Shown here one piece after another: positions 2,230-58,967 of a DNA stretch of 60,327 bases; position 1 is the stretch's first letter, and every line of letters starts with the position of its first letter. Origin of the DNA: a virus; the IMG/VR virus record IMGVR_UViG_3300032288_004972, positions 1-60,327 of that record. The stretch is one strand, 5' to 3'. Under the pieces are notes generated by a model that was not told the DNA's origin, made no database searches, and was given only the letters and a program-made list of their open reading frames with translations. Position numbers and translations under genes: made by a program.

Positions 2230-2397
2230 ATGGAAAACAAGGAAGTCAGCATAGTTCTGCCAGTTCAGGCATGGAACGTTGTCATGAACGCTCTTGGCCA
2301 GAGGCCTTTTCTTGAGGTTGCAGATTTGATCGCAAAGATCAAACAGCAAGCAGAAAATCAGCTTGCTCAAGTCGGAGCGCAAGAGCCGGAGAAGTAG
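2230..2397 (+). CDS. Small helical protein, unknown
   Basis: This 55-residue protein begins MENKEVSIVLPVQAWNVVMN. It is preceded by GGGGAGTTAAA, a good ribosome binding site inside the end of the previous gene. The pattern is a short beta strand followed by two helices; the second (LIAKIKQQAENQL) is strongly amphipathic and could dimerise. Similar tiny proteins are common downstream of fibre genes in tailed phages, but no function is known to me. It ends 4 bases before the methyltransferase start. Confidence 0.6.
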   Translation: MENKEVSIVLPVQAWNVVMNALGQRPFLEVADLIAKIKQQAENQLAQVGAQEPEK

Positions 2398-2401
2398 TTC
2401 A

Positions 2402-3001
2402 ATGACCCCGATCGCGGACATTGAGTTTGTTGGCGACCTAAGTCTCAGCGATGCTAGGCAACTGGCACTGCTTGGGGCAAAGGCCGCCCGCATTCTTGAG
2501 TTCGGGGTCGGGGGCAGCACTCAAATCTTTGCTCAGTGCTGCCCACAGACACTCGTGTGTGTCGACACGGACCTCGCTTGGATCGAGCGCACGCAGGCCA
2601 ATCTCAAGAGGATAAGTCACAAAAATTGGACCGTGCCTTGGTTCGACACGTACCCATACACGCCCGACCGTTTCTTTGATCTCGTCTTTGTTGATGGGCA
2701 CCCAAGCAAGCGGCTGGACTTCGCCATGCTTGTTTGGGCACATCTGCAAGTTGGCGGAAAGATGGTCTTTCACGACACCCGCCGCTTTGAGTATTTCCGC
2801 GAACTGGCGTGGGTGACACAGTCGTTTTTTAGTGAAGTGTCGCAAATCGAGATAAACGTCGGAGGCAGCAATCTATCGATCATAACGAAGTGCGCTCCGG
2901 TCCATTACGAGAACTGGAACCTGACAGAGGATAAGCCGATGTGGGCCTACGGGGCCTCGGAAGTGCCGGAGGGGGAAAAGTTATGGAAGATCGGAAGCTA
3001 A
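2402..3001 (+). CDS. Class I SAM-dependent methyltransferase-like protein
   Basis: The 199-residue protein has a Rossmann-type SAM-binding signature: ILEFGVGGS at residues 31-39 (motif I with acidic E33) and CVDTD at 53-57 (acidic residue at the end of strand 2). LVFVDGHPSKR follows about 40 residues later (motif IV region), then a GGKMVFHDT strand. This resembles small methyltransferases that act on sugars or small molecules. The ATG at 2402 is used; a longer frame exists upstream but overlaps the previous gene. The gene overlaps the glycosyltransferase start by 19 bases, so the two are translationally linked. It probably methylates a sugar added by that enzyme, but the substrate is unproven. 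Confidence 0.75.
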   Translation: MTPIADIEFVGDLSLSDARQLALLGAKAARILEFGVGGSTQIFAQCCPQTLVCVDTDLAWIERTQANLKRISHKNWTVPWFDTYPYTPDRFFDLVFVDGHPSKRLDFAMLVWAHLQVGGKMVFHDTRRFEYFRELAWVTQSFFSEVSQIEINVGGSNLSIITKCAPVHYENWNLTEDKPMWAYGASEVPEGEKLWKIGS

Positions 3002-4074
3002 AAATTGCGGTCTACGCAATTAGCAAAAACGAAGAGAAGTTCGTCAAGCGATTCTGCGAAGCAGCCAAAGACGCCGATGCGATCTACATCTCGGACACAG
3101 GAAGCACCGATGGAACGGTTGAGTTGGCGCGTTCGTGCGGTGCTGTGGTCAATCATATTTGTATTACTCCTTGGCGTTTTGACCACGCTCGCAATACTGC
3201 TCTCGCTCTTCTCCCTCGCGATATCGATATTTGCGTCTCTCTTGATCTAGACGAGGTGCTTCAGTCCGGCTGGCGCGAGGAGATCGAGCGCGTTTGGAAG
3301 CTCGGGGAGACGACCCGCCTGCGTTATATGTTCGATTGGGGCTGCGGAATCGCCTTCAAATACGAGAAGATCCACGCACGCCACGGGTATCATTGGCACC
3401 ACCCCTGTCATGAGTACCCGGTGCCGGATGGGCGGATCACTGAAGTCTGGGCCGACACCGACATGCTCCTCGTCGTGCATAAGGCTGACCCAACGAAGTC
3501 GCGGGGCCAGTACCTCGACTTGCTTGAACTGTCGGTGAAGGAAGATCCCGATTGTCCGCGCAATGCCTTCTACTATGCTCGGGAGCTCTCGTTTCACGCC
3601 AAGTGGCGGGAGGCGATCACGGCCTGTGAGAAATACCTGAAGCTTCCGCGCGCCGACTGGCCGAATGAAAGGTGCTACGCCTACCGCGTCATGGGGCGCT
3701 GCTACAATGAACTAAATGAGCCTTGGAATGCGGAGCGCATGTTCCAGATGGCGGCCTATGAAGCGCCGAACACTCGTGAGCCTTGGTGCGAATTGGCGAT
3801 GTTGATGTATCGTCAGAAGCGTTGGGAAGAATGTTTTGCTTACGCAACGCGGGCTCTAAAGATCACTGATCGCCTGATGGTCTACACGGTAGATCCGGAG
3901 GTTTGGGGCGCGCAGCCGCACGATCTTGCGAGCATCTCGGCTTATTGGATGGGGCTTCAAGACATTGCCATTAAGCAGGCAGAGATCGCCGTTGGCCTTG
4001 AACCGAGCAACGAACGATTGAAAAACAACTTAAAGTTTTTGAAAGAAGGCCCACTCGAGGAAAAGGCGGCATGA
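2983..4074 (+). CDS. Family 2-type glycosyltransferase with C-terminal TPR-like repeats
   Basis: The 363-residue protein starts at an ATG with a strong GGAGGGGG ribosome binding site inside the methyltransferase gene. The GT-A fold is indicated by AISKNEEKF near residue 12, ISDTGSTDGT at 36-45 and the DLD metal/nucleotide-sugar motif at 88-90 (DLDEVL). The second half is a helical repeat region (about residues 205-345) resembling TPR units. This is the layout of SunS-like and related peptide or surface glycosyltransferases. It lies two genes beyond a Thr-rich collagen-like fibre, so the fibre is a plausible acceptor; host surface glycan is the alternative. It ends with an ATGA overlap onto the next gene. 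Confidence 0.85.
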   Translation: MEDRKLKIAVYAISKNEEKFVKRFCEAAKDADAIYISDTGSTDGTVELARSCGAVVNHICITPWRFDHARNTALALLPRDIDICVSLDLDEVLQSGWREEIERVWKLGETTRLRYMFDWGCGIAFKYEKIHARHGYHWHHPCHEYPVPDGRITEVWADTDMLLVVHKADPTKSRGQYLDLLELSVKEDPDCPRNAFYYARELSFHAKWREAITACEKYLKLPRADWPNERCYAYRVMGRCYNELNEPWNAERMFQMAAYEAPNTREPWCELAMLMYRQKRWEECFAYATRALKITDRLMVYTVDPEVWGAQPHDLASISAYWMGLQDIAIKQAEIAVGLEPSNERLKNNLKFLKEGPLEEKAA

Positions 4075-6387: not shown

Positions 6388-7110
6388 ATGACGACGGGTC
6401 TGACCTACGCAACTGCGAAAACCCAACTTGCGACAATGGCTGTTGTCGACGAGAACGATTCAAATTTTTTGATCGTTCTACCGCAAGCGATTACCTATGC
6501 GGAGAACCGTTTGTGTCGGGATTTGGATTTTCTCCAATTCTCCTCCGCAGTAACAGGGAACCTTGTCGCAGGGAACCGTTCTTTGTCTTTAGCCGCAGGA
6601 ACCTTTGTTGTTCTTGAGCAAGCGAACATCATCACGCCTGCTGGAACGACAAATCCGGACGGAGCGACCGCTTCTCGCAACCCTTGTTTGCCAACGACAA
6701 AAGAATTCCTTGACGCAGTTTATGGGTCAAATATTACCGCAAATCGAGCGATGCCGCGTTATTTCGTCCCATTCAATGACAATACTTTCTTGTTTGGTCC
6801 TGTTCCGGATTCGGCTTACACTGTTGAATTTGTCGGTATGATCCGCCCCGAAAGTCTGTCCGCAACAAACACAACGACATTTATCAGCACTTATTTGCCT
6901 GATCTTTTTATTATGGCGACAATGATTTATTTGTCTGCATATCAAAGAAATTTCGGCCGTCAAAGTGACGAGCCCCAAATGGCTCAATCTTATGAGAATC
7001 AATACCAGCTGCTCCTGAAAGGTGCAACAGTTGAAGAGGCCCGCAAGAAATTCGAAGCTTCTGGATGGACTTCTAATTCTCCTTCCGTTGTTGCAACGCC
7101 GACGAGGTGA
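6388..7110 (+). CDS. SU10-type head-tail adaptor protein
   Basis: The 240-residue protein resembles the adaptor family named after phage SU10. That family sits below the portal in podoviruses with long-head or nozzle-type tails. Supporting segments are LPQAITYAENRLCRDLDFLQF near residue 30 (the family hallmark of an acidic helix ending in R-x-L-D), a FLFGPVPDSAYTVEFVGMI strand pair, and a helical C-terminus with YLPDLFIMATMIYLSAYQR. It is followed after 6 bases by the nozzle-like gene. The ribosome binding site is weak. Family assignment is from remembered sequence pattern. Confidence 0.75.
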   Translation: MTTGLTYATAKTQLATMAVVDENDSNFLIVLPQAITYAENRLCRDLDFLQFSSAVTGNLVAGNRSLSLAAGTFVVLEQANIITPAGTTNPDGATASRNPCLPTTKEFLDAVYGSNITANRAMPRYFVPFNDNTFLFGPVPDSAYTVEFVGMIRPESLSATNTTTFISTYLPDLFIMATMIYLSAYQRNFGRQSDEPQMAQSYENQYQLLLKGATVEEARKKFEASGWTSNSPSVVATPTR

Positions 7111-18016: not shown

Positions 18017-18729
18017 TGTCCATATATAATCTGCTTTGCGGCATAGGAGCAATTCAGGCTTCGCCCGGCACGCTTGTCAATACGCAAGAATTTACTTCGG
18101 CAGGCTCGGGAACATGGATAAAACCCGGCAACGCATCCTATGCAATCATTGAAATTTGGGCCGGAGGCGGCTCTGGCGGCATGGCGTACAATGGCCAAAC
18201 TTCCTCCCAAGGTGGACAGGGAGGGGCGTACGTTAGTTACCAAGCAAGCATGGCCGATATGGATGCAACCGAAGAATTGCTCGTAGCCGCTGGCGGCGCG
18301 AGGGTACAAAGTAATGGTGGCGCTGGCCTCCCCGGCGGTTTCTCTTGGTTTGGCAGGGCTATATGGGCGAAAGGCGGATATGGTGGCGGCGGGCAATTTG
18401 TTACCGCTTCTGCAGCCGCTAACTATACACCGACAGTCTCCCGCCCTTGGACATTGTTGAGCAGTGAAAATGGGGCGGGAAGCACCTATTCCGCCAATGG
18501 GACAAATGCAACATACGCAGGCGCTGGCGGTGGCGGCGCTTTCAATCTTGGCACCGGGTCATATCTTGGCGGCACATCAACCTACGGCGGTAATGGTGGC
18601 GCAGGAAACAACGGTGGCGGGAACGCCACTGCCGGATCACAACCCGGCGGCGGCGGCGGAGCAGCAATTTACGTTTATTTCTCCGGCGCGGGCGGCAACG
18701 GAAAAATTGTCGTCAAGAGCTACGCCTAA
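18016..18729 (+). CDS. Glycine-rich fibre-tip adhesin-like protein
   Basis: The 237-residue protein starts at the ATG overlapping the previous stop. Residues 30-60 (FTSAGSGTWIKPGNASYAII) match the start of glycine-rich phage domains. The remainder is very Gly-rich with GGGGSGG, GGQGG and GGNGGAGNNGGG runs, like the polyglycine-II adhesins on fibre tips such as T4-type gp38. It would determine receptor binding. Its stop overlaps the convergent gcrA stop, so no terminator separates the two transcription arms here. Confidence 0.75.
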   Translation: MSIYNLLCGIGAIQASPGTLVNTQEFTSAGSGTWIKPGNASYAIIEIWAGGGSGGMAYNGQTSSQGGQGGAYVSYQASMADMDATEELLVAAGGARVQSNGGAGLPGGFSWFGRAIWAKGGYGGGGQFVTASAAANYTPTVSRPWTLLSSENGAGSTYSANGTNATYAGAGGGGAFNLGTGSYLGGTSTYGGNGGAGNNGGGNATAGSQPGGGGGAAIYVYFSGAGGNGKIVVKSYA

Positions 18730-19223
18730 ATATATTTTATCGACCTTTTATATTGTGACAGCGATTGATAGCAGATTTTGTGATGATCTTCGCAATAAGT
18801 TTTACCTGACTTTTTGCGGCCGCAGAAAATGGCCCCGGCTCCGGAGCCTTCGACAATGAAGCGACAGGAGGAATCTGTCAGTCCCATTATTGCGACGCGC
18901 TCTTTCCTGCGTTTTGCTTTTTCGAAAATTTCATTGACCGCCGGAATTTCGGAGGGCTTGGACAGGAAGGCGAGCTTTTGGGGTTTTTCTCGCTTTGGCA
19001 GAACAACGGGATTTGCCTTTTTGCCTTTTTTCTTCTGAGGAGGCAGCGCCCTTACAGAGACAGATATGCCGCGTTCGCGCATTCTCGATATTCTGCCTGA
19101 AATCGAATTGCGCGTTGTGCCGAGTTCGATGGCAATTTCTCCCATCGAAAGCCCGCTGTTCCATGCTCGAATGATAAAATCTTCGATCTGTTCGACGGGG
19201 ATCTTGTTTTTTCTATCGAGCAT
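18726..19223 (-). CDS. gcrA: GcrA-family transcription regulator
   Basis: The 165-residue protein matches GcrA, which binds sigma70-RNA polymerase and activates promoters with methylated GANTC sites in Alphaproteobacteria. The N-terminal helix-turn-helix is visible (AWNSGLSMGEIAIELGTTRN, then SISGRISRM). A basic linker rich in Lys/Pro follows. The C-terminus has the family signature L-x-D-x-x-CRF...FCGRKKSGKTYCEDH, where Cys and His residues are conserved. It is last in the minus-strand operon. A phage copy could redirect host polymerase to phage late promoters or mimic the cell-cycle state. Confidence 0.85.
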   Translation of the reverse strand: MLDRKNKIPVEQIEDFIIRAWNSGLSMGEIAIELGTTRNSISGRISRMRERGISVSVRALPPQKKKGKKANPVVLPKREKPQKLAFLSKPSEIPAVNEIFEKAKRRKERVAIMGLTDSSCRFIVEGSGAGAIFCGRKKSGKTYCEDHHKICYQSLSQYKRSIKYI

Positions 19224-25761: not shown

Positions 25762-25857
25762 TTCCATCTCCATTTACATCAACCGTGTTTTCTTTCTGCC
25801 TGAGATTTTCAGAAAAGAAAACAAAAAAGATGCACCTTGATGAATTATTTTTCATCA
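25762..25857 (-). promoter_or_regulatory. Duplicated early leader, copy 1, with upstream hairpin
   Basis: Read on the minus strand, 25830-25762 carries TTTTTTGTTTTCTTTTCTG, GAAAATCTCAGGCA and TTGATGTAAATGGAGATGG. This closely parallels the leader at 27228-27297. GTTTTCTTTCTG (25787-25798) and CAGAAAAGAAAAC (25810-25822) also form an imperfect inverted repeat. Upstream, TGATGAA (25838-25844) and TTCATCA (25851-25857) make a short hairpin that starts at the stop of the glycosylase gene. Promoter plus ribosome-binding leader is likely. Confidence 0.6.
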
Positions 25858-26277
25858 GTCCTTGTGGGAGGGCACCGGGCGCTTGGGCTTGGCCATGATT
25901 TCCGCCAGCCGCTGTTCCAGCCGGGCGCGGTTCAGCGCTTGGTCGGCCTTGGTCGGTTTCCAGCTTTTGAACAGGTGGGGCGGCAGGCCTTCCGTCAAAC
26001 CCTTCAAATCCGGGAAATTGACCATCTTCTTGCGGGCGATCATTTCCACGACGAGGTCGGCGTAGCGCTCCGTGAGGTAGCGCAGCCGGGGGTAAAAGAA
26101 CTTGATGTGGCCGGTGCCGAGCGTGTAGGCCGCCGGGATGCCCGGAACCTTTGCCGGGTCCTCGCCGCGCTCCAGCGCCTTGCGGACATAAGCGAAGACG
26201 CGAGGGAGCTCGTGGTATTCAGCGATGAGGTGCTTGGTGTGGAGCTCCTCAACAGGGACGCAATTGATCCGGGTCAC
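25855..26277 (-). CDS. denV: T4 endonuclease V-like pyrimidine-dimer DNA glycosylase
   Basis: The 140-residue protein matches T4 endonuclease V in length and motif. It begins MTRINCVPVEELHTKHLIAE, giving catalytic Thr2 and Arg3 after Met removal, and continues with YHELPRVFAYVRK, which holds catalytic Glu23 and Arg26. LGTGHIKFFYPRLRYL matches the T4 LGAGHVTFFYDKLEFL segment. The enzyme cuts the glycosyl bond at UV-induced cyclobutane dimers and then the backbone. It uses a GTG start overlapping the previous stop (GTGA). It would let the phage repair UV damage, useful in sunlit water. Confidence 0.9.
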   Translation of the reverse strand: MTRINCVPVEELHTKHLIAEYHELPRVFAYVRKALERGEDPAKVPGIPAAYTLGTGHIKFFYPRLRYLTERYADLVVEMIARKKMVNFPDLKGLTEGLPPHLFKSWKPTKADQALNRARLEQRLAEIMAKPKRPVPSHKD

Positions 26278-27227: not shown

Positions 27228-27468
27228 TTTCATCTCCATTTACATTCAACAAACGCATTATGCCTGATCTTTTCCAAAAAGAAAACAAAAAACGTCGACC
27301 TGCCGAGGTCTAGTTTCCTTTTCAGAACAAGCACTTATCACACCAAACGTCCGCCCCCTGAAAAAAGTTCCCAAAAATCCAAAAAACAAGGTGCTTTTTA
27401 TAAAAAACCGGCGCAGTCTCAGCCCGTGGCAAAACAAAGCGATTTGCTTAAGCCCACAGGAGTCAAAA
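27228..27468. promoter_or_regulatory. Divergent early promoter region
   Basis: The 241-base gap separates the two divergent arms. The minus-side leader (27297-27228) reads TTTTTTGTTTTCTTTTTGG, GAAAAGATCAGGCATAATGC, then TTGAATGTAAATGGAGATG. CATAAT is a good -10 candidate. GACCTGCCGAGGTC (27297-27310) is a small dyad in the centre. The plus side is A/T-rich with GTGCTTTTTATAAAAAACC near 27390 and a GGAG ribosome binding site at 27459. Early promoters for both arms most likely lie here. No longer repeat was seen. Confidence 0.6.
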
Positions 27469-28275
27469 ATGGCAAAATCTGATACGCAGACCCTCGCTCC
27501 GGTCACTTCAAAGAGCGCCCTCCCAACCACCGCGAATGACGACATGTTCTTCTCTCAAGCCGGAGACGGCCTTGAGAACGTCAAGTCGAACGACCTCATC
27601 ATCCCCCGGCTCACCATTTTGCAGGCGTTGAGCCCGCAAGTGCAAGCCAAGAAGCCTGAATACATCCAAGGTGCGCAGGTCGGCGACATTTGCGACGTTG
27701 GCACCGGCGAGATTTTCGAGCCGCCGCTCGTGTTTCTCCCCGTTCACTACGTGAAGCAATATCTCGAGTGGGCACCGCGTTCTTCGGGCAAGGGACTGGT
27801 CAAGATCCATGACAGCGCTGACATCCTTGAGCAGTGCACGATGGACGAAAAGAACCGGGCGCATTTGCCTTCGGGGAACTACATCGCCGAGACCGCGCAG
27901 TTTTTCGGGCTGAACATTTCAGCCGGTGGACGGCGCTCGTTTCTCCCGATGTCAAGCACGCAGCTGAAAAAGGCCCGGCGCTGGTTGACGCTGGCGACGA
28001 GCGAAAAGGTTGCGCGCCCGGACGGTTCGACGTTCACGCCGCCGTTGTTCTACCGGACCTACAACATTTCCGTTGTTGACGAGAGCAACGCGGAAGGCTC
28101 GTGGGCGGGTTGGAAGATCGAGCGCGGCGCGAAGCTGCAGGAGCTCGGCGACGGCTGGCAAAACTTGTACAAAGAGGCGATGGACTTCCGTGACTCGATC
28201 AAGCGTGGCGAGCTCCGTGGTGACCTTGATCGCGAAGAAGGCAGCGCCGCAATGCATGACGACGCAGCGATGTGA
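27469..28275 (+). CDS. Conserved early phage protein, possible ssDNA-binding type
   Basis: The 268-residue protein is read from the ATG at 27469 (ACAGGAG before it). Conserved parts are NDLIIPRLTILQALSPQVQA, GAQVGDICDVGTGEIFEPPL, FLPVHYVKQYLEWAPRSSGK and a C-terminal WAGWKIERGAKLQELGDGW, then an acidic tail (DLDREEGSAAMHDDAAM). The pattern is common at the head of podophage replication operons. A mixed beta core with an acidic C-terminal tail would fit a single-strand binding protein such as T7 gp2.5, but no direct family match is claimed. Own terminator downstream suggests high expression. Confidence 0.7.
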   Translation: MAKSDTQTLAPVTSKSALPTTANDDMFFSQAGDGLENVKSNDLIIPRLTILQALSPQVQAKKPEYIQGAQVGDICDVGTGEIFEPPLVFLPVHYVKQYLEWAPRSSGKGLVKIHDSADILEQCTMDEKNRAHLPSGNYIAETAQFFGLNISAGGRRSFLPMSSTQLKKARRWLTLATSEKVARPDGSTFTPPLFYRTYNISVVDESNAEGSWAGWKIERGAKLQELGDGWQNLYKEAMDFRDSIKRGELRGDLDREEGSAAMHDDAAM

Positions 28276-28284
28276 CGTCAACTG

Positions 28285-28312
28285 AGAGGAGGCGCAATGC
28301 CTCCTCTTTTTT
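28285..28312 (+). terminator. Rho-independent terminator
   Basis: AGAGGAGGC (28285-28293) and GCCTCCTCT (28299-28307) form a perfect 9-bp stem with loop GCAAT, followed by TTTTT. It lies 9 bases after the stop of the first plus-arm gene. It would limit read-through into the downstream early genes. Confidence 0.85.
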
Positions 28313-28335
28313 CGCCCTTTTTCGAGGAAATGAAG

Positions 28336-28899
28336 ATGACTGAGGATTTTGGTTTCGATATCGAGCAAGAGCAGACCGGCGACACCATGCAGCGCATGCG
28401 CGCCATGGCTTCGGAAGTGATTGCACAAGAGCGTCTCGTCGAAGAGCTTGAGGAAAACCTCGCTGAAATCAAGAAGCAGCTGAACAAGCTCAAGATGATT
28501 GAGCTCCCGGACCTCATGGCCGAATGCGGCATGAGCGAGTTGAAAACGGATGACGGCGTGACGATCAAGATCGAGGATTTTGTTTCCGGATCGCTGCCGA
28601 AAGACTTTGATAAGCGTGAAGCCGCTATTTCATGGCTCGAGGATCATGACGCTGCGGGCCTCATCAAGACGGAATTGACGCTCGCCTTCGAAAAGTCTCA
28701 GCACAATGAAGCCATGAGCCTCGCTGCGGAATTGCACGAGCGGGGTTATGATTCAGCCGCAAAGATGGGTGTTCATCCGCAAACGCTCATCGCTCATGTG
28801 AAAGAGCGCCTGCGCAAGGGCGAAGAAGTGCCGCTGGAGGTGCTGGGCCTTTACGCCGGGCGGACCGCAAAGATCAAATTCCCAAAGGTGAAAACATGA
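28336..28899 (+). CDS. Conserved phage coiled-coil early protein
   Basis: From the ATG at 28336 the protein has 187 residues. The preceding GAGGAAATGAAG resembles the leader pattern of other early genes. Residues 20-65 form a strong coiled coil (ERLVEELEENLAEIKKQLNK) followed by LPDLMAECGMSELKTDDGVT, an arrangement seen in a widespread podophage protein (DUF7173-like, from memory). The C-terminus has GVHPQTLIAHVKERLRKGEE. It is usually next to the presumed single-strand binding protein, as here. Function is unknown. It overlaps the next gene by 4 bases. Confidence 0.75.
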   Translation: MTEDFGFDIEQEQTGDTMQRMRAMASEVIAQERLVEELEENLAEIKKQLNKLKMIELPDLMAECGMSELKTDDGVTIKIEDFVSGSLPKDFDKREAAISWLEDHDAAGLIKTELTLAFEKSQHNEAMSLAAELHERGYDSAAKMGVHPQTLIAHVKERLRKGEEVPLEVLGLYAGRTAKIKFPKVKT

Positions 28900-29519
28900 G
28901 CTTCCTTGCCAAGCGGTTCACCATCGCCTTTCAGCTTTCTTCGGTGCAACGGTTTTCTCGTGACTTCATGCAGAAGCCCGAGAACGTGCTTGAGCACATC
29001 GGCTTTTGCACATTTTACGCAACGCTGCTGGCCAAGAAGGCAGAGGCCGCTGGCATCAAGGTTGACTACGCTGCGCTCATGACCGCTGTCATGGCGCACG
29101 ACATCGACGAATCCGTGCTTGGGGACATGCCCCGCAGCACAAAATACCTGACGCCGCAGATCCGGAGCTCTGTTGCGAGAGCGGAAGAGATCGTCGTCGG
29201 CAAAATTTCTGACTGGCTCGGAACGAACCTTTCCCCCGCTTGGTTCAATGCAAAGGTCGGCCTCGAAGGGGAGATCCTGAAGCTCTCTGACATTGCCGCC
29301 GTCGTGTACAAAAACTGGGTTGAGGTTGAGATGCTGAACAACCGGAGCTTTCTCCGGGTTTGCCTCGAAACGCTTGGCTACATTGAATCAATCGAACGTG
29401 AGGATTACTCTTTTGTTTTTGCAGACGAGATCGAAGAACTCAAGACGATGGTTCGAATGATCCTGAACAAGCATGCTCCAACAGACGCTGATGAACTGTT
29501 TCTTCATGTAAGGAAATGA
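28896..29519 (+). CDS. HD-domain phosphohydrolase (5'-deoxynucleotidase-like)
   Basis: The 207-residue protein has an HD-domain pattern like YfbR: VLEHIGFCTFYATLLAK supplies His34 and AVMAHDIDESVLGDMPRSTK supplies His68-Asp69. A later acidic residue lies in LKLSDIAAVVYKNWVE. YfbR-type enzymes remove phosphate from deoxynucleoside monophosphates. Together with the following ThyX-like, deoxyribosyltransferase-like, HAD and dCMP deaminase genes it indicates active nucleotide remodelling. It ends 2 bases before the next gene. Confidence 0.8.
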   Translation: MSFLAKRFTIAFQLSSVQRFSRDFMQKPENVLEHIGFCTFYATLLAKKAEAAGIKVDYAALMTAVMAHDIDESVLGDMPRSTKYLTPQIRSSVARAEEIVVGKISDWLGTNLSPAWFNAKVGLEGEILKLSDIAAVVYKNWVEVEMLNNRSFLRVCLETLGYIESIEREDYSFVFADEIEELKTMVRMILNKHAPTDADELFLHVRK

Positions 29520-29521
29520 AA

Positions 29522-30613
29522 ATGCAAATCGAACGCGCTCCCGTCACGGCCCAACTGGAATGGTACGGTTCCATCACCCAGATCAAAAAGGCATGGGAGG
29601 TTTCCCGGCCTGCGGATTTCGATCCGAAAATCGAGAACATCCTCAAGATGGACGTTCCGGTCAATGAGTTTTTGCAATTGCAGTTCGCCGTCACTGCGCC
29701 GGTGCTGGTCCGTGAAGTCATTTGCTCCATGCGCAATCATGTCGTTTGGGCGCGCTCAAGCCGCGTCGACGACCTCACGCATTGGAAGGTCGCCCACACT
29801 GTCACAGAAGACCAATTTTTTGAATTGCAGATCAAGCACGGAAGGATGATGCACGAAATGAAATCGCATCATCAGGACGACTTCCGCCGTCTGTTGCCGC
29901 TGGCCTACATGACCACGTTCAGTTTTCAAATGTCGGTGCGTGACTTTGTGCGATTCTCGATCTGGGCAGAGCGGACGAGGAACGTGGTTTTGTACGTTTT
30001 CTGCAAGCGCTGCCTGACGGCGCTTGAGGAGGCGCTGCCGGTCCTCGCGTCATGGATTGATGATTTGGTTCGTGACGGCGCGTATTCTGTCGGGGAATTG
30101 TTGCCGCGTCCATCTTCGCAAGACAATGCGCGGCTCGGCGCTTTCATCGGCATCACCAGCAAGGTCCCTCTTGGACTCAGGGCGCAATTCATCCGTCACC
30201 GGGCGATCATGATTGCCGACAATTTCGCGGACTACCTCGCTCCAGAATATATGACGGCCGACATGACGGCGCTCGTTGATTTGCAAGCAGTTATGCATGA
30301 GGATTTCGCCATTCAGCTTGTTCGCAAGCGCAGTTGCTGGATTGCGCAGACGGATTTGTGGAAGCCGATCATTGGCCAGCTTTCCACGTTCATCGCGACG
30401 GACCAAGCGCTCCCTTGTTACGACGGCCAATGCCGGTTCAAGAGAGACAATGACCTGCGCAAGGCGGACAAAGATCCTTCGCCGCCCTGCCCCGTTGCGG
30501 CCCGGTTGCATGGCGAACGGATGAAGCCATTGCATGCCATCGCAGCATATGACTACGCTGAAAACCGCCCCAACAAGAACTTCTGGATGGAGGAGATCGA
30601 CAATGTTGCGTGA
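29522..30613 (+). CDS. Divergent ThyX-like flavin-dependent thymidylate synthase family protein with extra C-terminal domain
   Basis: The 363-residue protein is read from the ATG at 29522 (AAGGA, 7-base spacing). Two stretches align with ThyX by eye. FLQLQFAVTAPVLVREVICS (residues 50-69) followed by MRNHVVWARSSR corresponds to the region of the RHRxxxxNExSxRY motif. RRLLPLAYMTTFSFQMSVRD (about 122-141) matches the R..LP...T.F.....R helix. The usual RHR is altered to R-N-H. A C-terminal part of about 170 residues adds FIRHRAIMIADNF and a Cys-containing CYDGQCRFKRDNDLR segment. It may make thymidylate or a modified pyrimidine nucleotide. Function is not proven. Confidence 0.6.
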   Translation: MQIERAPVTAQLEWYGSITQIKKAWEVSRPADFDPKIENILKMDVPVNEFLQLQFAVTAPVLVREVICSMRNHVVWARSSRVDDLTHWKVAHTVTEDQFFELQIKHGRMMHEMKSHHQDDFRRLLPLAYMTTFSFQMSVRDFVRFSIWAERTRNVVLYVFCKRCLTALEEALPVLASWIDDLVRDGAYSVGELLPRPSSQDNARLGAFIGITSKVPLGLRAQFIRHRAIMIADNFADYLAPEYMTADMTALVDLQAVMHEDFAIQLVRKRSCWIAQTDLWKPIIGQLSTFIATDQALPCYDGQCRFKRDNDLRKADKDPSPPCPVAARLHGERMKPLHAIAAYDYAENRPNKNFWMEEIDNVA

Positions 30614-31082
30614 ATTTATTTACGATGTTTATCTCGCAGGACCGTTTTTCACCGAAGAGCAAAAGTCTATCATGGACAGAGCGAAGCGGCTGCTGACGCA
30701 GCGCCGAATCGTTGTCGCAGATCCAAGAGACTTTTCACCGATCATTTCAGACATGACGGAAAAGCCGACGCCGGAGCTCTGCAAGGAAATCTACGACGGT
30801 AATATATACGCGATGAGCAACTCAGCTTGTTGCTTCGCGAACATTGACTTCAAGGACACCGGAACGTCTTTCGAGATGGGTTGGTTCGCCTCGAGGCGCA
30901 GACCAATCTTAACTTTCTCATTCAAGGGCGCTGAGGCGAACGTCATGCTCGCTCAATCATCGAAGGGTCATGTTTCTTCCGCACCGGATTTCGAGAATTT
31001 TGTATGGGACGCAGAGCCGCTGATTCGTAACCAGACGCTCGAGACGCTCGGCGTTCTTCCGCTCGCGGAGGCGGACGAATGA
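30603..31082 (+). CDS. Nucleoside 2-deoxyribosyltransferase-like protein
   Basis: The 159-residue protein has a strong GGAGGAG ribosome binding site inside the preceding gene. Its N-terminus has DVYLAGPFFTEEQKSIMDRA, the NDT-type substrate loop. The core has GNIYAMSNSACCFANIDFKD, then TGTSFEMGWFASRRRPI, where the Glu in FEMG is the usual catalytic nucleophile and DTGT the preceding motif. NDT enzymes swap the base on a 2'-deoxyribonucleoside; relatives hydrolyse modified nucleotides (for example DNPH1/RCL type). It overlaps the ThyX-like gene by 11 bases and the HAD gene by 4, so all three are coupled. Confidence 0.8.
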   Translation: MLREFIYDVYLAGPFFTEEQKSIMDRAKRLLTQRRIVVADPRDFSPIISDMTEKPTPELCKEIYDGNIYAMSNSACCFANIDFKDTGTSFEMGWFASRRRPILTFSFKGAEANVMLAQSSKGHVSSAPDFENFVWDAEPLIRNQTLETLGVLPLAEADE

Positions 31083-31531
31083 AAGACCGCACTGTCATCT
31101 TCGACATTGACGGGACGCTCTCCGATGCGACGCACCGCCAGCCCTTGGCACAGACGCGCCAATGGGATGCGTTTCATGAGAAATGCCTCGAAGATCCCGT
31201 CATCGCGCCAATCGCGGATCTCATGCGATGGATGGCCGTCCGTTGCACCACGATTTTGCTGACAGGTCGCAACGAGCGGTTCCGACACCTGACAGTTCAG
31301 TGGCTCGAGCAGGCCGGGCTCGCAGGAATGTACGACAAACTTCTCATGCGTCCGGACAATGATTTCAGCGTTGATCATGACATGAAGATCGCAGCCATCG
31401 AAAAGCATTTCAAAAGCAAGGATGCTGCGCTCGAGACCGTTTGGTTCGTTGTTGAAGACAGGGACTCGGTTGTCGAGGCGCTTCGGAACTATGGGTTCAC
31501 TGTCCTTCAACCATGCACAGGGAGCTATTGA
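31079..31531 (+). CDS. HAD-superfamily phosphatase, polynucleotide-kinase-phosphatase-like
   Basis: The 150-residue protein has the HAD nucleophile motif IFDIDGTLSD (Asp9 and Asp11), then HRQPLAQTRQWDAFHEKCLE, ILLTGRNERFRH (motif II Thr) and a C-terminal FVVEDRDSVVEALRNYG (motif IV acidic residues). This is close to the phosphatase half of T4 polynucleotide kinase (PseT), without the kinase half. It may remove 3'-phosphates from nucleic acid ends or act on nucleotides made by the neighbouring enzymes. Confidence 0.8.
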   Translation: MKDRTVIFDIDGTLSDATHRQPLAQTRQWDAFHEKCLEDPVIAPIADLMRWMAVRCTTILLTGRNERFRHLTVQWLEQAGLAGMYDKLLMRPDNDFSVDHDMKIAAIEKHFKSKDAALETVWFVVEDRDSVVEALRNYGFTVLQPCTGSY

Positions 31532-32354: not shown

Positions 32355-32382
32355 ACAACAAAGACCCCACAAGGAGCTATTG

Positions 32383-32703
32383 ATGAAAACCGTACCGCAA
32401 CTGCTGCGAGATGCAGCAGGGATCTATGAAGAGCGCAACAAACTTTACGGCGACAACTACAAGCGCTTCGGCGAAATCATGGCATTGCTTTTTCCGAACA
32501 ATGCGGAGCTCGCCTTTTCGAACGAGTTCAATCGTTTCGGAATTTTTGTGCAGATGGTCTCGAAGCTGACGCGCTACGCCGAAAACTTTGACCGGGGCGG
32601 ACATCGCGATTCGTTGGACGACCTCGCCGTTTATGCGATGATGCTACGCGAACTCGATGATGAGAATGCGGCGGCGGAAGTCGATCGGGAGCGTGGAAAG
32701 TGA
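32383..32703 (+). CDS. All-helical conserved phage protein (DUF6378/Nmad-like)
   Basis: From the ATG at 32383 (AAGGAGC before it) this is a 106-residue helical protein: LLRDAAGIYEERNKLYGDNY, then SNEFNRFGIFVQMVSKLTRY and GGHRDSLDDLAVYAMMLREL. The ERN..YGDN and HRDSLDDLAVYA pattern is shared with widespread small phage proteins resembling all-alpha NTP pyrophosphatases and the domains called nucleotide-modification-associated. It might hydrolyse a non-canonical dNTP. The acidic residues needed for metal binding are only partly evident. Confidence 0.7.
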   Translation: MKTVPQLLRDAAGIYEERNKLYGDNYKRFGEIMALLFPNNAELAFSNEFNRFGIFVQMVSKLTRYAENFDRGGHRDSLDDLAVYAMMLRELDDENAAAEVDRERGK

Positions 32704-33233: not shown

Positions 33234-33757
33234 AAACTCTTGTCATAGATTGTGAAACTACGGGCCTCGTCAAGAACCGGCTCGTGCCGTTGGCTCGTCA
33301 GCCGAAGGTCATTGAGCTTTTCGGCCTGACAGTCGAAGAAGAGGACGAGGTGCTCGCGTTCTCAAGCCTTTTCAATCCCGGACACGGGGTTGATGCCGAC
33401 ACGACCCGCATCACCGGCATCACCGACAACATGCTTGCGGAAGCCGAATCGTTTGCCGAAAAAGCACAGGCAATCAAAGACGCCATCGAGCGCCATGATG
33501 AAGTCGTCGCTCACAACTTGAGCTTCGATAAAACGATGATCGACCTTGAGATGGAGCGCGTCGGGTTGACGATTGAATGGCCGCAACTCATTTGCACTGT
33601 TGAAGCGACGGTGCACTTGAAAGGCCATCGATTGAACCTGAATGCGCTGCACCATTTTCTTTTCGACGAGGAATTCACCGGCGCGCACCGGGCGGAAAAC
33701 GACGTGCGTGCACTTGCCCGCTGTTTCAAAGAGCTCAGGAAAAGGGGGATCGTATGA
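33230..33757 (+). CDS. DnaQ-like DEDDh 3'-5' exonuclease
   Basis: The 175-residue protein has the exonuclease motifs LVIDCETTGL (Asp7, Glu9), VVAHNLSFDKTMIDLEM (Asp100) and GAHRAENDVRALARCF (His153, Asp158). This is the DEDDh subfamily used for proofreading by Pol III epsilon. It overlaps the HNH and dCMP deaminase genes by 4 bases each and lies two genes before the DnaE-type polymerase. It therefore very likely proofreads for that enzyme, whose own PHP domain looks inactive. Confidence 0.88.
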   Translation: MKTLVIDCETTGLVKNRLVPLARQPKVIELFGLTVEEEDEVLAFSSLFNPGHGVDADTTRITGITDNMLAEAESFAEKAQAIKDAIERHDEVVAHNLSFDKTMIDLEMERVGLTIEWPQLICTVEATVHLKGHRLNLNALHHFLFDEEFTGAHRAENDVRALARCFKELRKRGIV

Positions 33758-34191
33758 ATTGGAATGATTATTTCATGAACTTTGCACACATGGCGAAGTT
33801 CAAATCAAAAGACAGCACGCAGGTGGGGGCAATCCTTGTTGGGCCGGAGAACGAGATCCGGTTGACGGGGTTCAACGGACCGCCCAAGGGCGTGAAGGAA
33901 ACGGACGAGCGCCGCGAGCGCCCGACGAAATATCTCTACACTTCACACGCGGAAGAGAATTTGATCGCCTTCGCAGCACGAGAAGGAATTCGCACGAACG
34001 GATGCACCGTTTATGTCACGCACATGCCTTGCGCCCGTTGTGCCCGCACGCTCATTCAAGCGGGCGTGAAGAGGATCGTTTACGACGCGGGGAACACTTC
34101 CATGCCCACGGAGGAATTCAAAGCAGCCGAAGAAATGTTTTTCGAAGCGCGTATCTCTGTCACTCCATTCGCCTCCAAGGAGGAAAAATGA
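33754..34191 (+). CDS. dCMP deaminase
   Basis: The 145-residue protein has the zinc-dependent deaminase signature SHAEENLIAF (His65, catalytic Glu67) and MPCARCARTLIQAGV (Cys93, Cys96). The substrate-side NDYFMNFAHMAKFKSKDSTQ segment at the start is typical of dCMP deaminases. It would convert dCMP to dUMP, the substrate for a thymidylate synthase or a dUMP-modifying enzyme, in line with the ThyX-like gene upstream. It overlaps the next small gene by ATGA. Confidence 0.9.
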   Translation: MNWNDYFMNFAHMAKFKSKDSTQVGAILVGPENEIRLTGFNGPPKGVKETDERRERPTKYLYTSHAEENLIAFAAREGIRTNGCTVYVTHMPCARCARTLIQAGVKRIVYDAGNTSMPTEEFKAAEEMFFEARISVTPFASKEEK

Positions 34192-57327: not shown

Positions 57328-58272
57328 ATGCAAACAAGAACAGTTAGCGTCGGCCCTGTAACTGCCGCCGTCACCAATCAGGTCGCTGCTTCGCAGACGC
57401 CGAATGCTGGTCAGATCATCCTCAATGGTGCTGGCGCAACTTATAGCATAAACAACATTGCCGAATCTCAGGATCCTGCGGGTGCAGGAAATCTTACGTT
57501 GGTGGCATCTTATATTCCTTTTGCAAATCCGCGTTATGTTTACATTACAAGCGCTGCGGATGATTCGCTTTTGACGTTTACAGTCACGGGCGTTGATATC
57601 AATGGCTCTCCTCTCGCTGAAACGATAACTGGCGGAAACGCTAAGGCCGTCTCGAGCACAAAGAAGTTCAAGGCTGTAACAAATGTTTCTGTGAGCGGCG
57701 ATTCTGGCTCCGTGCAGGTCGGGTCTTTTGAGCGCGCCACTTTTACGGGCGCGACAGCGCGACAGGTTACGATCGTTGCAGTCGGAAACGAAAGTGCAAA
57801 AACATTCGTTGTCACCGGAACTGACAATACTGGAAACACAATTTCTGAGACAGTTGCCGGACCAAACGCGACCACAGCGACAACGGCAGCTTATTTTAAG
57901 ACGGTAACGAGCGTTACGATTTCAGCGGACGCTGCTGATGCGCTCACCGTAGGAATGACCAACACGGCCTCCTCTTCTTGGGTTCGTTTTGATGATTTTA
58001 CGTCGCCGCCGATCTCTGTTCAGTGCGACGTAACGGGCTCTGTCACTTACACTGTTCAGAGCACGATGAACGACCCGAACGATCCGTTCAGCGCGCCTGC
58101 CTATTCAGCGGTCAGCTGGGTCAACTCGTCTGACACAGCAGTCGTTGCAGCAACTGGGACAAAACAATCGAGCTTCACGGTCGCTCCGCGATATGCGCGG
58201 GTTCTTGTAACGACCACGAGCACGGGCTCCGTAAATGCAATGTTCATGCAGAGTGGATCGGTTCCTGAGTAA
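57328..58272 (+). CDS. Beta-rich virion protein with repeated domains
   Basis: The 314-residue protein has a short GCAAGTGAG region before its ATG. After a Thr/Val-rich start (TRTVSVGPVTAAVTNQVAAS), two related units of about 65 residues are seen. One has LLTFTVTGVDINGSPLAETI and the other KTFVVTGTDNTGNTISETVA; each is followed by a lysine-containing FKAVTNVSV or FKTVTSVTI strand. A C-terminal jelly-roll-like part has VQCDVTGSVTYTVQSTMNDP. Immunoglobulin-like or beta-sandwich units of this sort occur in head and tail decoration. Its stop overlaps the next start by one base. Confidence 0.7.
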   Translation: MQTRTVSVGPVTAAVTNQVAASQTPNAGQIILNGAGATYSINNIAESQDPAGAGNLTLVASYIPFANPRYVYITSAADDSLLTFTVTGVDINGSPLAETITGGNAKAVSSTKKFKAVTNVSVSGDSGSVQVGSFERATFTGATARQVTIVAVGNESAKTFVVTGTDNTGNTISETVAGPNATTATTAAYFKTVTSVTISADAADALTVGMTNTASSSWVRFDDFTSPPISVQCDVTGSVTYTVQSTMNDPNDPFSAPAYSAVSWVNSSDTAVVAATGTKQSSFTVAPRYARVLVTTTSTGSVNAMFMQSGSVPE

Positions 58273-58967
58273 TGGCAACGAGCGGAACATATACGTTCGA
58301 TCCGTCGATTGGCGAAATAACCCTCCATGCTTACAACATGGTGGGGATTCGCCCTTCCGCTATTGTCCAAGAGCATCTTGAAGCCGCGCGCATGGCGTGC
58401 AATTTGATTTGTGCAAGCTTTTCGAACCGGGGCGTAAATCTTTGGGCGGTCGATTTGATTACAGTTCCGCTAATCGCTGGGCAGTCGACATATAACGTCG
58501 ATGCAAATACAGTGATGATTCTTGATGCATATATGAGAATCGACGACGGCATAAACGATCCGATTGATCGTTTGATTCTTCCAGTCAGTCGTTCAGAATA
58601 TGCCAGCTATCCAAACAAAGACCAGGAAGGTTTTACGACCGTATTCTGGTTCGATCGTCTGATTGCGCCGACGATCACTCTTTGGCCTGTTCCGGATGGA
58701 ACGAGTGCGCAGTATTTGAGATACTATCGTGTTCGTCGTATTCAAGATGCGGCTTTGACAAATGGTCAGACGGTTGAAATGCCGTATCTTTGGCTCGACG
58801 CATTCACCAGTGCTTTGGCTTTTCGGCTGGCAATAATTTGGGCTCCTGACAAGGCTCCGTTCTTTAAACCTCTTGCTGACGAAGCATATAAAATCGCAGC
58901 AGACCAAAACATCGAACAGTCTGATTTCTATATCTCGCCTTCACTGTCCTCTTACTGGAGGGCTTGA
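58272..58967 (+). CDS. Head-tail connector-type protein
   Basis: The 231-residue protein starts TFDPSIGEITLHAYNMVGIR, then HLEAARMACNLICASFSNRG and VNLWAVDLITVPLIAGQSTY. This is typical of a podophage connector or tail-tube family (P22 gp4-like in role). The rest includes LILPVSRSEYASYPNKDQEG, FWFDRLIAPTITLWPVPDGT and FTSALAFRLAIIWAPDKAPF. The layout (helical N-terminus, beta centre, helical end) resembles that of the SU10-type adaptor at 6388, and both may form rings between portal and nozzle. Assignment by pattern and place. Confidence 0.65.
   Translation: MATSGTYTFDPSIGEITLHAYNMVGIRPSAIVQEHLEAARMACNLICASFSNRGVNLWAVDLITVPLIAGQSTYNVDANTVMILDAYMRIDDGINDPIDRLILPVSRSEYASYPNKDQEGFTTVFWFDRLIAPTITLWPVPDGTSAQYLRYYRVRRIQDAALTNGQTVEMPYLWLDAFTSALAFRLAIIWAPDKAPFFKPLADEAYKIAADQNIEQSDFYISPSLSSYWRA

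What the first reader, a model, noticed from the sequence alone, without database searches (positions are those of the whole stretch)
29522..30613. ThyX-like protein with altered catalytic motif and a cysteine-containing extra domain
Seen directly: two ThyX-like stretches in the first 150 residues, but the RHR signature is changed to R-N-H. About 170 extra residues contain an RHR and a CYDGQC segment. Neighbours are an HD phosphohydrolase, a deoxyribosyltransferase-like protein, a HAD phosphatase, an Nmad-like protein and dCMP deaminase. Established: phages that replace thymine often recruit thymidylate-synthase relatives to hydroxymethylate dUMP. Inference: the cluster may make a modified deoxypyrimidine rather than just dTMP.
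Basis: partly seen in the sequence, partly recalled or inferred. Interest (0 to 1): 0.75.

Follow-up and report, generated by a model that had tools for sequence, protein, structure and literature searches.

The report
Phage enzyme for sugar-tailed thymine (proposed)
A phage gene that looks like a duplicated, re-wired thymidylate synthase almost always travels with a gene that handles deoxyribose sugars, and its only chemically characterised relatives come from phages whose thymine is heavily modified, so it probably attaches something larger than a methyl group, perhaps a five-carbon sugar chain, to the uracil of dUMP.

Summary
ORF 29516-30613 is a real ThyX-fold protein (AlphaFold pLDDT 94; N-domain Z 14.5 to ThyX). 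The "extra domain" is not a new Cys domain but a second, shortened ThyX domain. The flavin-binding Q..RHR and an R174-like arginine sit in the C-domain, dUMP-binding arginines in the N-domain. Single-domain relatives (L033, LIS04) carry both kinds of motif in one domain, which suggests duplication followed by partition. Folate-site residues (H53, Y91) are replaced. The family was found only in viral sequence (45 clusters at 80% identity) and includes SP-15 gp130 and YerA41 gp081, from two phages with chemically proven thymine hypermodification.

A nucleoside-deoxyribosyltransferase (NDT) gene lies beside it in 30/33 dereplicated loci and somewhere in 21/22 records, against 0/26 and 0/25 for canonical phage ThyX. 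A YfbR-like 5'-nucleotidase is adjacent in 23/33 against 0/26. SP-15, LIS04 and Carin-5 also encode a true thymidylate synthase.

Best reading: a flavin enzyme making a 5-substituted dUMP, most likely by reductive addition of a deoxyribose-derived C5 aldehyde supplied by the neighbours. The modified-base part is likely; the C5-sugar donor is inferred. Rivals: hydroxymethyl-dUMP synthase with dTMP removal, or a divergent dTMP synthase.

The parts
28896..29519 (+). YfbR-like HD 5'-deoxynucleotidase, overlaps the ThyX-like start by 4 nt
   Evidence: PF12917 E 8.5e-19; metal-site residues H34, H68, D69, E72, D132 conserved in 24-25 of 25 homologues; adjacent to the ThyX-like gene in 23/33 loci
29516..30613 (+). 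tandem ThyX-like protein, 365 aa
   Evidence: translation; structure pLDDT 94; family of 91 loci
29531..30085 (+). N-terminal ThyX domain (residues 6-190), keeps dUMP-side arginines R83, R124, R142
   Evidence: Z 14.5 to 3n3y; HMM alignment to T. maritima ThyX E 5e-10
29732..29767 (+). altered signature R73-N-H ... W78-A-x-S-S-R83-V in place of RHRxxSxNExSxRY
   Evidence: R73 40/41, W78 41/41, R83 41/41, V84 36/41
30098..30610 (+). C-terminal shortened ThyX domain plus tail (residues 195-365)
   Evidence: pLDDT 92.4 alone; all top PDB rows are ThyX, Z 5.5-6.9
30185..30202 (+). Q224-x-x-R227-H228-R229, displaced flavin-binding RHR
   Evidence: Q 34/41, R 39/41, H 35/41, R 33/41; gapless to Q75..R78-H79-R80
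30326..30361 (+). KRSCWIAQTDLW motif, R272 proposed equivalent of R174
   Evidence: R272 41/41, W282 41/41; same motif inside the single-domain forms L033 and LIS04
30416..30433 (+). CYDGQC segment in the C-terminal tail
   Evidence: C301 and C306 each 36/41, not universal
30606..31082 (+). nucleoside 2-deoxyribosyltransferase (NDT) family protein, overlaps the ThyX-like stop by 8 nt
   Evidence: PF05014 E 1.1e-17; nucleophile Glu (E114 of the long ORF) 31/31, D108 31/31, N-x-M motif 29-30/31; best solved relatives are deoxyribosyltransferases
31079..31531 (+). HAD phosphatase, polynucleotide-kinase phosphatase-like, overlaps NDT by 4 nt
   Evidence: PF25109 E 6.8e-18; near in 11 of 33 loci
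32377..32703 (+). DUF6378 / MazG-like protein
   Evidence: weak Pfam match, PHROG_4889 1e-12; within 6 kb in 21/33 loci
33754..34191 (+). dCMP deaminase (a possible source of dUMP)
   Evidence: PF00383 E 1.5e-22, PHROG_174 2.3e-38

Best explanation
A phage flavoenzyme of ThyX descent that makes a 5-substituted dUMP for hypermodified DNA. Proposed mechanism: the HD nucleotidase turns dNMP into deoxynucleoside, the NDT-family protein releases or transfers its 2-deoxyribose, and the tandem ThyX-like protein binds FAD mainly through its C-domain (Q..RHR) and dUMP mainly through its N-domain. Reduced flavin N5 captures the sugar aldehyde as a carbinolamine (as ThyX does with formaldehyde) and passes the carbon to C5 of dUMP, giving a 5-(polyhydroxypentyl)-dUMP. 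Shown here: fold, duplication, residue partition, loss of folate-site residues, gene partnership, homology to SP-15 gp130. Inferred: flavin and dUMP binding, the C5 donor, the product, and every enzymatic step.
For: Homologues in SP-15 (gp130) and YerA41. SP-15 DNA carries 5-(4,5-dihydroxypentyl)uracil made at nucleotide level (PMC5977210), and a 1978 title reports label from ribose entering that base (title only, reference 42 there). YerA41 thymidine carries a 104-Da spacer (PMC9023294), nominally C4H8O3, the increment for a trihydroxypentyl group. NDT partner: 30/33 adjacent and 21/22 records, against 0/26 and 0/25 for canonical ThyX, even when unlinked (Carin-5 11 kb away, L161 about 80 kb away). 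NDT and HD catalytic residues intact. H53 replaced by D/N and Y91 by V/T. Canonical TS also present in SP-15, LIS04 and Carin-5, so dTMP synthesis is covered there. Free-formaldehyde chemistry on ThyX flavin N5 is published (PMC8316439).
Against: No biochemistry on any member. The NDT could instead destroy unwanted nucleotides, as DmtZ does in Z-phages (PMC12884076). No ThyX is known to me to accept an aldehyde larger than formaldehyde. In SP-15 a further deoxygenation would be needed. The 104-Da match is nominal mass only and not unique. The window phage has no other TS, so a dTMP role there is possible. L033 lacks an NDT, but its contig is only 29 kb.
Confidence: 0.4

Rival explanations
1. 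It is a hydroxymethyl-dUMP synthase of ThyX descent that uses methylene-THF; the HD nucleotidase and NDT destroy dTMP or thymidine so that the modified nucleotide wins, as HD and NDT-like enzymes clear dATP/dAMP in Z-phages. Side chains are built later on hydroxymethyl-dU.
For: Proposed for SP-15 gp130 by its sequencers (PMC5977210). The HD plus NDT pair parallels nucleotide-clearing enzymes of Z-phages (PMC12884076). Gene partnership equally strong for this reading.
Against: SP-15, LIS04 and Carin-5 make dTMP with their own TS yet keep the NDT. SP-15 keeps about half its thymine and builds the pentyl chain before polymerisation (PMC5977210). Folate-site residues H53 and Y91 are replaced. HD is missing next to the gene in several members while NDT stays.
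Confidence: 0.27
2. It is simply a divergent thymidylate synthase that supplies dTMP, and its neighbours recycle nucleotides.
For: ThyX fold and conserved dUMP-side arginines. The window record and most short records have no other TS.
Against: Redundant with a true TS in three phages. Below ThyX curated cut-offs. H53, the R78-H79 register, N85-E86 and Y91 changed. Occurs in two phages with hypermodified T.
Confidence: 0.2
3. It is a catalytically dead ThyX relative with a structural or regulatory role, for example a scaffold for nucleotide-metabolism proteins.
For: Neither domain alone carries the complete ThyX site.
Against: Both halves of the site are strongly conserved and complementary over very divergent phages (40-41 of 41 for key arginines); dead proteins rarely keep this.
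Confidence: 0.06

Closest known systems
Bacillus phage SP-15 gp130 ('thymidylate synthetase', proposed hydroxymethyl-dUMP synthase)
   Same: Full-length homologue with tandem organisation, same signature residues, NDT (gp127) nearby
   Different: Only about 21% identical; has QH in place of HR in the second RHR; FabG-like reductase instead of HD beside it; its phage has a second, canonical ThyX (gp9)
ThyX, flavin-dependent thymidylate synthase (T. maritima, M. tuberculosis, H. pylori)
   Same: Fold of both domains; dUMP-side arginines (R90, R147, R165 equivalents) in N-domain; Q75, RHR and R174 equivalents in C-domain
   Different: Two domains with a partitioned site; H53, N85, E86, Y91 changed; below family cut-offs; constant NDT partner
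Double-length ThyX of Microcystis phage LMM01 (491 aa)
   Same: Foldseek aligns 438 columns, so tandem ThyX forms exist elsewhere in phages
   Different: Not found by sequence search with the window protein; its context and residues were not examined
DmtZ / nucleoside deoxyribosyltransferase family (neighbour gene)
   Same: PF05014, catalytic Glu conserved, Asn at the usual Asp position as in DmtZ
   Different: Keeps the N-x-M motif aligned with solved nucleoside transferases, which suggests nucleoside rather than nucleotide substrates; partner is ThyX-like, not PurZ

Membership tests
ThyX (PF02511 / TIGR02170) | ThyX fold | tested here: met
   N-domain Z 14.5, rmsd 2.4 over 176 residues; C-half alone Z 6.9, rmsd 2.8-3.1 over 105-107 residues, only ThyX above background
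ThyX (PF02511 / TIGR02170) | score above curated cut-off | tested here: not met
   16.3 against 24.8 bits; no TIGR02170 match
ThyX (PF02511 / TIGR02170) | contiguous RHRxxSxNExSxRY signature in one domain | tested here: not met
   N-domain has SMRNHVVWARSSRV; RHR is in the C-domain
ThyX (PF02511 / TIGR02170) | folate-site H53 and Y91 | tested here: not met
   H53 position D in 38 and N in 2 of 40; Y91 position V 35, T 4, N 1; the H53 register rests on a gapless extension plus structure
ThyX (PF02511 / TIGR02170) | dUMP to dTMP activity | not testable with these tools
   needs enzyme assay
SP-15 gp130-like family (defined here) | W-x-x-[ST]-S-R and KR-x-x-W-x-A-Q-x-x-W signatures with NDT in the genome | tested here: met
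ThyA-type deoxypyrimidine hydroxymethylase | PF00303 domain | tested here: not met
   no PF00303 match in the window record
Nucleoside deoxyribosyltransferase (neighbour) | PF05014 domain with catalytic Glu | tested here: met
dUMP 5-pentylating enzyme (proposed) | transfer of a C5 unit to dUMP | not testable with these tools
   needs enzyme assay or base analysis

The most novel reading that the evidence does not exclude
A flavin-dependent enzyme joins a deoxyribose-derived five-carbon aldehyde to C5 of dUMP by carbon-carbon bond formation, so that phages turn one nucleotide's sugar into another nucleotide's side chain; the module HD nucleotidase - ThyX-like - NDT is the missing biosynthetic route to dihydroxypentyluracil-type bases and is widespread in uncultured phages.
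Probability: 0.35. Interest if true: 0.92.

Novelty: new variant of a known kind. Interest (0 to 1): 0.72.

Why it matters
How SP-15 builds its pentyl-uracil has been open since the 1970s, and in 2018 gp130 was reported to have no homologues (PMC5977210). This work shows a broad viral family, ties it to NDT and nucleotidase genes, and gives a short list of substrates to test. If right, it extends ThyX chemistry from one carbon to sugar-sized units, and it gives a sequence marker that predicts hypermodified thymine in many uncultured phages.

Tried and rejected
Single-sequence search of viral contigs found nothing; profile scans did. Scan of 84,980 bacterial/archaeal species genomes: no relative, with one pattern only. 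Separate cysteine domain: rejected, the C-half is ThyX-like. Cysteines as a universal metal site: rejected, missing in several members. Sequence-only profile comparison of the C-half to ThyX or to the N-half was not significant, so that claim rests on structure and on the single-domain forms L033 and LIS04. Glycosyltransferase as a constant partner: rejected, GT2 in 2 of 12 records. ThyA in the window: none. Papers by Walker and Mandel 1978 are not held. No paper linking ThyX-like proteins, NDT and phage base modification was found beyond those cited.

Full report
What is there. The ORF 29516-30613 (+) encodes 365 residues. It lies in a run of overlapping genes: HD 28896-29519 overlaps its start by 4 nt, the NDT-family gene from ATG 30606 overlaps its stop by 8 nt, and the HAD phosphatase at 31079 overlaps the NDT stop by 4 nt. 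This reads as one translationally coupled unit. The record is a 60,327-bp virus contig of a tailed phage; a GcrA homologue suggests an alphaproteobacterial host (inference).

Fold and domain structure. AlphaFold2 with 42 sequences in the alignment gives pLDDT 94 and pTM 0.88. Residues 6-190 match solved ThyX enzymes (Z 14.5, rmsd 2.4 over 176 residues to 3n3y; next unrelated fold 3.6). The C-half folded alone (pLDDT 92.4) also ranks only ThyX entries first, at Z 5.5-6.9 against 3.8 for the next fold. Z values of 6-7 are modest in general, but the separation from all other folds and the shared motifs make a shortened ThyX domain the best reading.

Where the catalytic residues went. In that register R73 = R80, R83 = R90, R124 = R147, R142 = R165; S71 and M72 replace R78 and H79. 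The C-domain aligns Q224 with Q75 and R227-H228-R229 with R78-H79-R80. Its invariant R272 in KRSCWIAQTDLW fits R174, by motif. Position 46 (H53 in ThyX) is D in 38 and N in 2 of 40 members, and position 84 (Y91) is V or T in 39 of 40. H53 is described as a folate-stabilising residue that also contacts Y91 (PMC11940539), and Y91 assists methylene transfer (PMC8316439). So the flavin half and the dUMP half of the site have been split between two domains, and the folate end has changed.

A missing link. L033 and the Listeria phage LIS04 protein have one ThyX domain that carries both sets of motifs: LREQ(L/M)VRHR or RSK, W..(T)SR, R...P, and KR.(C/S)WIAQ..LW. L033 still scores 61 bits with TIGR02170. 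The tandem forms look like a duplication followed by partition. Double-length ThyX forms exist elsewhere (LMM01), so duplication alone is not new.

Distribution. Relatives occur in 91 loci (45 clusters at 80% identity, 33 at 60%), from cultured phages of Bacillus, Listeria, Streptococcus, Yersinia, Xanthomonas, Cobetia and Vibrio to environmental contigs. One pattern scan of prokaryote species genomes found none, so it appears to be viral, within the limits of that scan.

Gene partners with a control. An NDT gene lies within 1.5 kb in 30 of 33 dereplicated loci; among 26 dereplicated canonical phage ThyX loci it is 0. Over whole records, 21 of 22 have PF05014 above its cut-off against 0 of 25 control records (Fisher P about 1e-12 to 1e-13; relatedness within each set makes these P values optimistic). 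The link survives loss of synteny: in Carin-5 the NDT is 11 kb away, in L161 about 80 kb away. A YfbR-like HD gene is adjacent in 23 of 33 against 0 of 26. Catalytic residues of both partners are intact. Limits: the control comes from one branch of ThyX (gp9-like), and many family loci come from related phages, though SP-15, LIS04, GXN1, the Vibrio phages, phiXF1 and YerA41 are very different from each other.

Chemistry already known for two members' phages. In SP-15 over half of thymine is replaced by 5-(4,5-dihydroxypentyl)uracil carrying glucose and phosphoglucuronate, and that base is made before DNA synthesis; gp130 was guessed to be a hydroxymethyluridylate synthase and had no known homologues (PMC5977210). 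A 1978 paper title reports label from ribose in this base (reference 42 there; the paper itself was not available). In YerA41 an estimated 56% of thymidine carries a roughly 1-kDa substitution with a 104-Da spacer (PMC9023294). A trihydroxypentyl-dU would weigh 346.138, thymidine + 104.047. That is exactly the product expected from dUMP + 2-deoxyribose + two electrons, but the published value is nominal and other formulas fit.

Mechanism proposed. ThyX transfers one carbon from a flavin N5 carbinolamine to dUMP and can take it from free formaldehyde (PMC8316439). Replacing formaldehyde by the aldehyde form of 2-deoxyribose would give a 5-(3,4,5-trihydroxypentyl)-dUMP by the same steps. The HD enzyme (dNMP to deoxynucleoside) and the NDT-family enzyme (deoxyribose release or transfer) would feed it; in SP-15 and Carin-5 a FabG-like reductase might remove one more hydroxyl. 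Phage NDT-family enzymes that release deoxyribose-5-phosphate are known (DmtZ, PMC12884076). All steps here are inference.

Why not simply clear dTMP? That rival explains the HD and NDT well. It is weakened because SP-15, LIS04 and Carin-5 carry their own canonical thymidylate synthase and still keep the NDT. It is not excluded, and for phages without their own TS, such as the window, a dTMP role is also open.

Verdict. The specific form favoured here is a sugar-derived C5 side chain. Confidence: ThyX-descended family distinct from ordinary ThyX, high; makes something other than dTMP, about 0.7; C5 sugar donor, about 0.4.

Noticed in passing
6388-7110 and 58272-58967: Two SU10 adaptor-like proteins (PF24175, E 1e-18 and 1e-7), close together only if the record is circular; duplicate adaptors or one misassigned structural protein.
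   Followed up: no
18729-19223 (-): GcrA cell-cycle regulator homologue (E 9.7e-18), suggesting an alphaproteobacterial host.
   Followed up: no
2363-4074: Methyltransferase and GT2-type glycosyltransferase with TPR repeats, candidates for tailoring a modified base or for host-surface work; GT2 is not a constant partner of the family (2 of 12 records).
   Followed up: partly
L003:12251-12745 (YerA41): Acb1-like anti-CBASS protein (PF23474, E 1.3e-14), annotated as structural protein, about 1.2 kb downstream of the YerA41 ThyX-like gene.
   Followed up: no
25855-26277 (-): Pyrimidine-dimer DNA glycosylase-like protein (PF03013, E 2e-9).
   Followed up: no
27463-28896: Pam3 cyanophage gp34-like and gp33-like proteins precede the module; they also flank the ThyX-like gene in about a third of loci (34 and 31 of 91).
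   Followed up: partly
L163 (Vibrio phage vB_ValP_VA-RY-3): A phage with a related DNA polymerase III alpha carries a gene annotated as thymidylate synthase about 2 kb upstream of it, so the family may have replaced an ordinary ThyX in this replication module.
   Followed up: partly
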